A DNA stretch of 22,733 nucleotides from a virus, in the IMG/VR virus record IMGVR_UViG_3300000233_000026, positions 2,850-25,582 of that record. One strand, written 5' to 3'. The position numbers and the translations under genes were made by a program. Numbering within the stretch: the stretch's first letter is position 1; every line of letters starts with the position of its first letter. Of the stretch, positions 5,578 to 7,569 are shown in pieces. The notes below the pieces were generated by a model. It did no database searches and was not told the DNA's origin. It worked only from the letters and a program-made list of their open reading frames with translations.

Positions 5578-5841
5578 ATGGCTATAACAAATTTTGAAAT
5601 TTTTGAGCAATTCTATAAGCGTATTGCACAGGATGGGGCTAGCTTGTCCGATCTTATGAGGGAGTATGGTGGTATGCCCATTTACGTCCCCTCTTGGGGA
5701 TCCAATGGGCGAAATAAAGAGCTTGTTGAGGATTACTTAATCAACAAGCTGTCCCCTAAAGAATTAGCTCTAAAATACCACCTCTCTCTATCTCGTGTGT
5801 ACGAGATTTTAGGGGAGACTAGAACCCCATCACTTTTCTAG
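5578..5841 (+). CDS. Mor/C-type middle/late transcription activator
   Basis: An 87-aa DNA-binding activator. Residues 31-38 (GGMPIYVP) are the hallmark beta-strand of the Mor/C family. Residues 58-79 (LSPKELALKYHLSLSRVYEI) form the C-terminal HTH with the S-x-x-R-V-Y recognition helix. Mu Mor is 129 aa and C is 140 aa, so this is a short version with a minimal N-terminal dimerisation helix. ATG 5578 is chosen because AGGATGG lies at the right distance; ATG 5569 and TTG 5515 lie in the same frame and would add N-terminal residues. It should activate the divergent head and tail promoters (14220-14356); that target is inference. Its 3' end overlaps the convergent gpG gene by 12 bp. Confidence 0.85.
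   Translation: MAITNFEIFEQFYKRIAQDGASLSDLMREYGGMPIYVPSWGSNGRNKELVEDYLINKLSPKELALKYHLSLSRVYEILGETRTPSLF
5720..5750 (+). other. Inverted repeat inside the Mor-like gene
   Basis: Ten-bp perfect arms AGCTTGTTGA (5720-5729) and TCAACAAGCT (5741-5750) separated by 11 nt, within the region encoding the helix before the HTH. It could form an mRNA hairpin or be a binding site. Both codon contexts are ordinary, so its significance is uncertain. Confidence 0.4.
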
Positions 5842-6312
5842 GTACTCCTTTAAAATAGCTATAATCTCCTCTCCTGCCCCGCTGTAAAGCTCTCCTTGTA
5901 CATCTACTGGCATAAATGGACGTGAGGGTATCTTATCATTCTTTGTTGTCCCAAACTGGTGGACAGCTGGATAAGGGTACCCTTTACTGCTATAGGCATT
6001 TACCCCCACTATAACCCCCTCCTCATCCGCTTGGTATCCAACACTCTCCCTTAGCGTTCTGCTCCCACTTTGTAATATCTTATCTCCACCATGCTTTTCT
6101 TTGTATTTTTTAGTACTCTCTGCCAAGGGACTCCACGCCTCCCCACTGGGAGATGTTTCGGTATCGAAGCTCTCCTCTGCCACGTTGGAAAGGTAGCTTC
6201 CAATCGCTTCCATTGGCTTTTTTAAATTTTTTGTTTTGGTTAAAAGCTCTCTTAGTGCGTCTTCTATGGCATCCATACCTGTAACGGAAATAGATATTTG
6301 TTCATATGCCAT
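5830..6312 (-). CDS. Virion morphogenesis protein, Mu gpG-like
   Basis: A 160-aa protein of the phage virion morphogenesis (gpG / P2 gpS tail completion) family. Typical features are the N-terminal amphipathic segment (ISISVTGMDAIEDALRELL), the middle TSPSGEAWSPLAESTKKYK (family form 'D-x-x-G-x-x-W-x-x-L-x-x-x-T') and YPAVHQFGT…IPSRPFM ('HQ-x-G…I-P-x-R-P-F'). It acts in joining or completing head and tail. It is the last gene of the minus-strand head operon, directly downstream of gpF and the structured RNA element. An AAGGT stretch about 6 nt upstream of the ATG is a modest RBS. Its end overlaps the Mor-like gene on the opposite strand. Confidence 0.9.
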   Translation of the reverse strand: MAYEQISISVTGMDAIEDALRELLTKTKNLKKPMEAIGSYLSNVAEESFDTETSPSGEAWSPLAESTKKYKEKHGGDKILQSGSRTLRESVGYQADEEGVIVGVNAYSSKGYPYPAVHQFGTTKNDKIPSRPFMPVDVQGELYSGAGEEIIAILKEYLEK

Positions 6313-6326
6313 TTTTTACCTTTTTT

Positions 6327-6335
6327 TGGTATAAT
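6327..6335 (+). promoter_or_regulatory. Extended -10 promoter (TGGTATAAT) reading into structured RNA
   Basis: A perfect extended -10 (TG-N-TATAAT) preceded by two T-runs (6312-6317, 6321-6327). This fits the T-rich upstream pattern that replaces a -35 box in many Campylobacterota sigma-70 promoters. The predicted start is about 6342, at the 5' arm of the RNA hairpin. It is oriented opposite to the surrounding head genes. Confidence 0.6.
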
Positions 6336-6339
6336 TTTT

Positions 6340-6421
6340 TAAAAGAGCGAGTGGAAAGGTTAGGCGATACAGGCAACGCCCTGAGTCCTCCCACTTTTAA
6401 TCCTGTCAATCGGCTCTTTTA
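6340..6421 (+). ncRNA. Candidate structured RNA with predicted pseudoknot
   Basis: About 82 nt fold into nested helices. P1 is TAAAAGAGC (6340-6348) with GCTCTTTTA (6413-6421), 9 bp. P2 is AGTGG (6350-6354) with CCACT (6391-6395). P3 is AGG/UUA/GGCG (6357-6366) with CGCC/UGA/CCU (6377-6389, small bulges). The 10-nt P3 loop contains ACAGG (6369-6373), complementary to CCTGT (6402-6406) in the P2-P1 joining strand, giving a possible pseudoknot. On the plus strand it lies immediately after an extended -10 promoter and ends with a stem rich in T, like a built-in terminator. It could equally act on the minus strand as an element in the gpF-gpG intercistronic mRNA. It covers the gpF stop codon. I do not recognise the class. 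Confidence 0.5.
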
Positions 6422-7569
6422 TACATAAGCTTCCCGCTTCTTTTTTGTTCAAGCGTACTCCCACCATCGATGTAATAGAATGTTACACCTTGTGTTTTAT
6501 CTTCATTATATTCAAATAGTGCCATCGTCGCGCGCTTCCCTCCGCCCTCAGACTTAAAATACCTAAAAAGTTTTTTTACAAGTTTCTCTCGTTTTTTGTC
6601 AAATGCAATGTAAATTTCATCGGGATTTGCAATAGTTTTTGCGAATTCATCCACAAAAAGCTCTCTTCCTACGCGCTTTTTATCTTTTAGCTTATCATAT
6701 CCACCATTTCCAACAAAGAGATTCTCATCTATAGACATAGGATCACCGATCTTGTCTATGAATAGATCACCTTTTTTTACTTCAAGATCAGCATAAAATT
6801 TTTTCTTTAATTCTTCGCTTGATAGTTCTTTATATTCCCGCTTTGGTAATACGGTTGGTAGGATACCAATACTGCCATCAAGATCAATTTTTTTAATTTT
6901 CCCCACATTGCTTCCCCATCCTGGATTATATGCCCAATCGGGGGTTGCAATATCTTCTGAAGGTGTGGAAGATACGCTCCACCCCCGATTTTTTACTTGA
7001 CGTTCTGACCATGTACGCACTTCGCAGTGGCACCCCCACGCATTTATGGGGTAATTTTTCCCCCACCATGGATCCTCTTTTGGCAGAATAATCCCATTTT
7101 TTGCAAGATGGGAAGATCGCGGGTGATGCGAAAGTCCCCCTATATACTGCATATAGGGTAGATCACTCTCCATCTGTTGCCGATAGCGCGCGGTGGAGCG
7201 GGCTACGAGGGTATTTGTCTTAAAAATAGTTCTAAGCCTATTTCCCCCAATGGTAATGGTTTTTACCTCTCCCGTGCTTGGGTTTACAATATCCTTTTCC
7301 CCCCACCACCCTTTTTTCTCAAGATCGGGGATAATATTTTTCTTCCACTCTTCAAAGCCAATTCCACTCTCCATGGCAGAGGTGATGGTAGTGTGGAGAT
7401 CGTAGAGAATGTCTGCCCTCATGGCTTTAGCAGCGGTAAAACTTGTATTGTGCATCTCTTTTGCTACCTCTTGGTAGTTAAAAGAGATTTTATACCCCTT
7501 ATCCTGTAGCGTCTTTATTGCCTCTGTGGGCTTTAGGGCAAAGGAGAAGGAAGGGGAGGGAAGAGACAT
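6406..7569 (-). CDS. Mu gpF-like minor head protein with C-terminal PBECR-like nuclease domain
   Basis: A 387-aa protein. Residues about 30-195 are the Mu F / SPP1 gp7 minor head family. They comprise a helical segment, GNRLRTIFKTNTLVARSTARY (108-129), YMQYIGGLSHHPRSSHLAKNG (139-159) and NAWGCHCEVRTWS (176-188), with the conserved C-x-C. Residues about 255-387 form a separate domain: LFVDEFAKTIANPDEIYIAF, a basic strand LVKKLFRYFK, then TQGVTFYYIDGG. This layout follows the phage-Barnase/EndoU/colicin E5-D/RelE-like (PBECR) nucleases described at the C-termini of head morphogenesis proteins. The protein attaches to the portal/capsid; the extra domain may enter the host with the DNA (inference). 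It starts one base into the end of the portal gene. Confidence 0.85.
   Translation of the reverse strand: MSLPSPSFSFALKPTEAIKTLQDKGYKISFNYQEVAKEMHNTSFTAAKAMRADILYDLHTTITSAMESGIGFEEWKKNIIPDLEKKGWWGEKDIVNPSTGEVKTITIGGNRLRTIFKTNTLVARSTARYRQQMESDLPYMQYIGGLSHHPRSSHLAKNGIILPKEDPWWGKNYPINAWGCHCEVRTWSERQVKNRGWSVSSTPSEDIATPDWAYNPGWGSNVGKIKKIDLDGSIGILPTVLPKREYKELSSEELKKKFYADLEVKKGDLFIDKIGDPMSIDENLFVGNGGYDKLKDKKRVGRELFVDEFAKTIANPDEIYIAFDKKREKLVKKLFRYFKSEGGGKRATMALFEYNEDKTQGVTFYYIDGGSTLEQKRSGKLMYKRAD

What the first reader, a model, noticed from the sequence alone, without database searches (positions are those of the whole stretch)
6327..6421. Compact pseudoknot-like RNA with its own promoter, antisense to the head operon
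The 93-bp gap between the gpF and gpG genes, plus the end of gpF, holds a stacked fold: a 9-bp closing stem, a 5-bp second stem and a third stem whose loop ACAGG is complementary to CCTGT in the joining strand. Such coordinated pairing is unlikely by chance in an intercistronic gap. On the plus strand it is preceded by a perfect extended -10 (TGGTATAAT) at the right distance, and its closing stem has the A-tract/U-tract form of an intrinsic terminator. It therefore looks like an independent sRNA of about 80 nt. On the minus strand it would instead be an element in late mRNA near the gpG start. I do not recognise a ribozyme or riboswitch core (no hammerhead CUGAUGA, for example).
Basis: partly seen in the sequence, partly recalled or inferred. 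Interest (0 to 1): 0.72.

Follow-up and report, generated by a model that had tools for sequence, protein, structure and literature searches.

The report
RNA antidote to phage head nuclease
Next to the phage gene for a head protein that carries an RNA-cutting toxin domain sits a tiny gene for a folded RNA, and across many phages the two come and go together, so the RNA is probably the antidote that keeps the phage's own host from being poisoned.

Summary
In detail: window 6340-6421 (+) has an extended -10 box, a 9-bp closing stem and a pseudoknot (ACAGG/CCTGT). Homologues keep the pseudoknot by compensatory changes (AUAGG/CCUAU, AGAGG/CCUCU, GUCGG/CCGAC). It is one case of a widespread arrangement. 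The minus-strand gene it overlaps, gpF, is a MuF head protein with a C-terminal BECR-type nuclease domain (PBECR2). In Mu-like phages of Campylobacterota and Proteobacteria, gpF proteins with such a C-terminal domain nearly always have a promoter-driven, 70-120-nt structured RNA gene on the opposite strand at their 3' end. gpFs without the domain never do (0/13). PBECR2 goes with pseudoknot RNAs; the other nuclease superfamily (MuF_C) goes largely with tRNA-like RNAs (T-arm 23/48 vs 0/35). Phage Mu, whose domain has lost a conserved His and is described as inactive, lacks the RNA; an E. coli Mu-like sibling with the His has one. Best explanation: an RNA antitoxin/immunity factor (in some families a tRNA decoy) for a nuclease probably packaged in the head. 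The RNA and its linkage are shown by comparative evidence; expression, binding and neutralisation are inferred. No Rfam match; no description found in the open papers searched.

The parts
6327..6335 (+). Extended -10 promoter TGGTATAAT of the RNA gene
   Evidence: conserved in relatives. TGxTATAAT without a -35 box is the sigma-70 consensus of Campylobacter (PMC3656092)
6340..6421 (+). Structured RNA gene (proposed RNA antitoxin / immunity RNA), about 80 nt
   Evidence: Covariation; homologues at the same place in related phages
6340..6348 (+). P1 5' arm TAAAAGAGC
   Evidence: Pairs with 6413-6421; paired in nearly all homologues with double changes
6413..6421 (+). P1 3' arm GCTCTTTTA, within the last codons of gpF
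6349..6354 (+). P2 5' arm GAGTGG
   Evidence: Pairs with 6391-6396
6391..6396 (+). P2 3' arm CCACTT
6363..6366 (+). P3 5' arm GGCG
   Evidence: Covaries GGCG/CGCC to GGCA/UGCC
6377..6380 (+). P3 3' arm CGCC
6369..6373 (+). Pseudoknot strand 1, ACAGG in the P3 loop
   Evidence: Three of five pairs covary on both sides among 11 sequences
6402..6406 (+). Pseudoknot strand 2, CCTGT
6406..7569 (-). gpF: MuF head protein (residues 58-184) with C-terminal nuclease domain; proposed toxin
   Evidence: Pfam PF04233 and PF18810
6418..6786 (-). PBECR2 domain (residues 262-384 of gpF), predicted BECR-fold RNase
   Evidence: Pfam 4.7e-16; AlphaFold2 pLDDT 85.7; best PDB match is CDI toxin 6cp9, weak
5830..6312 (-). 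gpG (Phage_tail_S); its start codon lies just beyond the RNA promoter
   Evidence: Pfam PF05069

Best explanation
The + strand of 6340-6421 encodes a small pseudoknotted RNA, transcribed from its own sigma-70-type promoter, that acts as the antitoxin (immunity factor) of the nuclease domain at the C-terminus of gpF. Shown here by sequence: the RNA fold, its strand, its promoter, and its close linkage to gpF proteins that carry a nuclease domain, with RNA class following nuclease class. Inferred: the RNA binds and blocks the nuclease, as a substrate mimic where the RNA is tRNA-like, so that a lysogen and a phage-producing cell survive gpF. gpF is presumably packaged in the head and delivered with the DNA, where the nuclease would act in cells that lack the RNA.
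For: 1) Covariation: 11 homologues keep P1, P3 and the pseudoknot with double-sided changes; tool count 98.5% paired, 7 pairs double-changed vs 2.8 in shuffles and 0-2 in slid controls. In 31 PBECR2-linked RNAs the P1-P2-P3-pseudoknot arrangement beats shuffles at p<=0.1 in 23, while 12 MuF_C-linked controls do not. 2) Presence follows the domain: -10 plus closing stem at 69 of 87 gpFs with a C-terminal extension >=170 aa, 0 of 13 without (Fisher 3e-8). 3) Class follows the domain: T-arm in 23/48 MuF_C-type and 0/35 PBECR2-type (p=2e-7; background 1/101). 4) Loss with activity: in the MuF_C superfamily a His in the conserved motif region is present in 44/44 RNA+ and 2/6 RNA- proteins (p=7e-5). 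Mu gp30, called catalytically inactive by Iyer 2017 (PMC5512222), overlaps gpG and has no RNA; an E. coli Mu-like relative with the His has a tRNA-like RNA. The one RNA-less PBECR2 protein (L164) lost the otherwise invariant Arg. 5) RNA and domain switch together: 20 inferred class changes on the MuF tree, with near pairs such as L114 (no domain, no RNA) and L109 (PBECR2, RNA), 83% identical in the MuF domain. 6) Fresh genomes: eight further distinct PBECR2 genes all have the antisense RNA, two truncated ones do not. 7) Immunity-locus behaviour: tandem RNAs at one gpF (L010, L118) and two tRNA-like RNAs near mor with no gpF in the fetched stretch (L204).
Against: No transcript, binding or neutralisation data. 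The window's own gpF has Glu where most PBECR2 proteins have His (L002 has Gln), so its activity is unsure, although the invariant Arg is kept. L088 and L050 keep a His but lack a recognised RNA. The statistics treat related phages as independent and the His region was chosen after seeing the alignment. The fold match to a tRNase toxin is weak (E=0.011) and the MuF_C model has no match. No terminator, so the RNA 3' end is unknown.
Confidence: 0.7

Rival explanations
1. The RNA is a partner of gpF in the virion: it is bound by the C-terminal domain, packaged, and used as a cofactor, scaffold or guide (compare phi29 pRNA), not as an antidote.
For: Same linkage and covariation data; gpF is a head protein.
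Against: Loss of the RNA with loss of catalytic residues and two RNAs near mor without gpF fit immunity better; phages with short gpF do without it.
Confidence: 0.13
2. The tRNA-like and pseudoknot RNAs are decoys or replacement tRNAs against host tRNA-cutting defences, and merely sit in a hotspot after gpF.
For: Phage tRNAs do evade such defences (PMC10264068, PMC11555353); a T-arm is present in many.
Against: Does not explain absence at gpFs without the domain or the match of RNA class to gpF domain class.
Confidence: 0.07
3. A cis-antisense RNA that silences the head operon (gpF end and gpG start) during lysogeny.
For: Position and orientation.
Against: Antisense pairing needs no fold, yet the fold is kept by compensatory changes; only 16 nt of the RNA overlap gpF; absent where gpF lacks the nuclease domain.
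Confidence: 0.06
4. A short peptide is encoded on this strand (25 codons from GTG in the window).
For: The frame is open in the window, L002, L018 and L019.
Against: Broken by a 1-nt insertion in L098, not recovered in L109; only 6 of 38 RNAs have ORFs at p<0.1 against shuffles.
Confidence: 0.02

Closest known systems
Type III toxin-antitoxin systems (ToxIN, CptIN, TenpIN)
   Same: RNase-like toxin proposed to be neutralised by a pseudoknotted RNA
   Different: Here a single-copy RNA, antisense and 3' of the toxin, own promoter; the toxin is a BECR-type domain fused to a phage head protein, and some partner RNAs are tRNA-like
AbiF/Abi_2 with RCd22 RNA (prophage of C. difficile, PMC12373285)
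   Same: Prophage-encoded protein neutralised by a cognate structured RNA through direct binding
   Different: Unrelated protein (Abi_2, Cas13-like) and RNA; not a virion protein
MuF polymorphic toxins of temperate phages (Jamet 2017, PMC5576092)
   Same: MuF head domain with exchangeable C-terminal toxin, encoded after the portal gene
   Different: Their immunity is expected to be a small protein encoded just downstream; here a structured RNA gene occupies that place
PBECR domains of MuF and polyvalent phage proteins (Iyer 2017, PMC5512222)
   Same: The gpF C-terminal domain is this family; predicted RNase injected with the virion
   Different: No RNA partner was mentioned in the passages read; Mu's inactive copy lacks one
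BECR tRNase toxins such as colicin D/E5 and CDI toxin 6cp9
   Same: Predicted fold class and likely RNA target
   Different: Neutralised by immunity proteins, not RNA

Membership tests
Type III toxin-antitoxin | RNA antitoxin of short tandem repeats upstream of and co-transcribed with the toxin gene | tested here: not met
   Single RNA, 3' of gpF, opposite strand, own promoter
Type III toxin-antitoxin | Toxin of the ToxN/CptN/TenpN families | tested here: not met
   Pfam finds only Phage_Mu_F and PBECR2
Type III toxin-antitoxin | Pseudoknotted RNA that binds and inhibits the toxin | tested here: inconclusive
   Pseudoknot supported by covariation; binding not testable
MuF polymorphic toxins | MuF domain encoded next to the portal gene, with variable C-terminal toxin domain | tested here: met
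MuF polymorphic toxins | Small immunity ORF immediately downstream | tested here: not met
   gpG follows after 93 bp; the gap holds only a non-conserved 25-codon frame
PBECR2 RNase family | Match to PF18810 above the curated cut-off | tested here: met
   59.5 bits vs 27.1
PBECR2 RNase family | His in the N-terminal helix of the active site | tested here: not met
   Window Glu, L002 Gln; most relatives His; invariant Arg kept
tRNA | Recognised tRNA with T-arm | tested here: not met
   No T-arm and no ARAGORN hit in the window; T-arm only in relatives with MuF_C-type gpF
Any Rfam 15 family (incl. Mu-gpT-DE) | Score at or above gathering threshold | tested here: not met

The most novel reading that the evidence does not exclude
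A new kind of immunity: virion-borne polymorphic nuclease toxins of Mu-like phages are paired with exchangeable RNA immunity genes, several independent RNA folds having been recruited, some of them tRNA decoys, so that toxin and RNA travel as one cassette across phages of several proteobacterial classes and Campylobacterota.
Probability: 0.6. Interest if true: 0.93.

Novelty: new variant of a known kind. Interest (0 to 1): 0.87.

Why it matters
MuF toxins are widespread, but phages of Proteobacteria have many C-terminal extensions of unknown function with no evident immunity protein (PMC5576092). If the immunity factor is an RNA on the other strand, that explains the gap, identifies hundreds of unannotated RNA genes (in E. 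coli RefSeq labelled 'tRNA-OTHER'), predicts which head proteins are active nucleases, and adds RNA decoys to the known ways of neutralising polymorphic toxins. It is directly testable in E. coli K-12.

Tried and rejected
Ribozyme (my first thought was twister-like on the minus strand): no Rfam match and the conserved pairing and strand signals disagree. Intrinsic terminator: none found. tRNA gene in the window: ARAGORN negative. Coding peptide: frame not conserved. Free-standing copies of the window-type RNA: model R1 over 298 Campylobacterota genomes gave three marginal hits without gpF or gpG genes nearby, judged chance. The first genome scan with gpF patterns found nothing; a terminase profile worked. 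PDB sequence search gave nothing.

Full report
WHAT IS IN THE WINDOW. The window lies in a 25.6-kb virus record that encodes a Mu-like phage; the closest annotated relatives are prophages of Helicobacter and Campylobacter. The head operon runs on the minus strand: portal, gpF (6406-7569), a 93-bp gap, gpG (5830-6312). gpF is a Phage_Mu_F protein with a C-terminal PBECR2 domain (Pfam). On the plus strand the gap contains TGGTATAAT at 6327-6335 and then a folded element 6340-6421, whose 3' arm overlaps the last 16 nt of gpF. Nested folding energy alone is not striking.

THE FOLD IS REAL. The nearest relative (L002, gpF 79% identical) has the element in the same gap with the pseudoknot changed from ACAGG/CCUGU to AUAGG/CCUAU. 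Further relatives have AGAGG/CCUCU and GUCGG/CCGAC, and fresh genomes give GCGAG/CUCGC and GUAAG/CUUAC (read from the sequences). In a tool-made alignment of five sequences 98.5% of cells are paired, 7 pairs change on both sides against 2.8 in shuffles and 0-2 in slid controls. Among 11 hand-aligned sequences P1, P3 and the pseudoknot covary, with 6 G-U and 0 A-C pairs, which favours the plus strand. In 31 PBECR2-linked RNAs the architecture P1 [P2 (P3 with loop) linker ] with loop-linker pairing reaches p<=0.1 in 23; twelve RNAs linked to the other nuclease class, as controls, do not.

IT IS A GENERAL ARRANGEMENT. In related phages the place between gpF and gpG holds, on the antisense strand, a -10 box followed by a structured RNA of 70-120 nt closed by a terminal stem, also outside Campylobacterota. 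The RNAs differ in fold. An objective scan (-10 plus closing stem) is positive for 69 of 87 gpFs with a C-terminal extension of at least 170 aa and for 0 of 13 without (Fisher 3e-8); at least eight of the 18 misses have an RNA by other signs (T-arm, tandem or weaker promoter).

RNA CLASS FOLLOWS NUCLEASE CLASS. The extensions fall into two main superfamilies, PBECR2 and a MuF_C type that includes Mu gp30. T-arms with canonical T-loops occur in 23 of 48 MuF_C-type loci and 0 of 35 PBECR2 loci; background 1 of 101. ARAGORN recognises only two of 18 such loci, and NCBI's pipeline labels the E. coli ones 'tRNA-OTHER'. Their closing stems are longer than an acceptor stem and the anticodon arm is often aberrant or reduced (read from sequence).

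THE RNA IS LOST WHEN THE NUCLEASE IS LOST. In the MuF_C superfamily all 44 RNA-positive proteins have a His in the conserved motif region; of six RNA-negative long proteins four have none (Mu, JBD18, L067, L185) and two do (L050, L088). Mu's domain was described as catalytically inactive (PMC5512222); in Mu, gpF and gpG overlap and there is no RNA. A Mu-like prophage on an E. coli plasmid keeps the His and has a tRNA-like RNA. In PBECR2 the single RNA-negative protein, L164, lacks an otherwise invariant Arg. On the tree of the MuF domain the class changes about 20 times, and near neighbours show RNA and domain lost together, e.g. L114 versus L109. In 298 freshly drawn Campylobacterota genomes, eight new distinct PBECR2 genes all have the RNA, while truncated genes L198 and L200 do not.

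MECHANISM. MuF proteins are head components with effector domains thought to be delivered with the DNA (PMC5512222, PMC5576092). A producer cell must be protected; for polymorphic toxins the immunity gene normally lies just downstream. Here that place is taken by a constitutive-looking promoter and a structured RNA. The simplest reading is an RNA that binds and blocks the nuclease; where it is tRNA-like it would act as a decoy substrate. The predicted structure of the window's domain (pLDDT 85.7) has a CDI toxin, 6cp9, as its best PDB match, although weakly (E=0.011); that this toxin is a BECR-type tRNase is my own knowledge.

LIMITS. Nothing here shows expression, binding or toxicity. Related phages are not independent samples. 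The window's own PBECR2 has Glu in place of the usual His. L088 and L050 are exceptions (a His, no recognised RNA). No terminator was found, so the RNA length is inferred from P1. The literature check covers open-licence papers only.

VERDICT. The element is best explained as the RNA antitoxin/immunity factor of the gpF nuclease, one of a large, largely unannotated set.

Noticed in passing
L204 (E. coli STEC17-183) 2496-2691: Two tandem tRNA-like RNAs beside a mor gene with no gpF in the fetched stretch (annotated tRNA-Tyr and tRNA-OTHER): look like orphan immunity RNAs.
   Followed up: partly
L205 1603-1683, L206 1611-1690 and the same place in about 200 complete E. coli genomes: PGAP annotates 'tRNA-OTHER' antisense between gpF and gpG of Mu-like prophages, including O157:H7; the 601-bp region covering gpF end, gap and gpG start is in 222 of 5,426 genomes.
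   Followed up: partly
L010, L016, L021, L118, antisense strand after gpF: Two or three different structured RNAs in tandem at one gpF, reminiscent of arrays of orphan immunity genes.
   Followed up: no
L063 3587-3652 and L054 3732-3791: Type II hammerhead ribozymes elsewhere in Mu-like prophages of Desulfovibrio/Bilophila (Rfam gathering hits).
   Followed up: no
L069 4669-4754: C4 antisense RNA (Rfam) in a Mu-like prophage that also has a tRNA-like RNA after gpF.
   Followed up: no
window 6406-7569 (-): The window's PBECR2 domain and that of L002 carry Glu/Gln where most relatives have the putative catalytic His, although the RNA is retained.
   Followed up: partly
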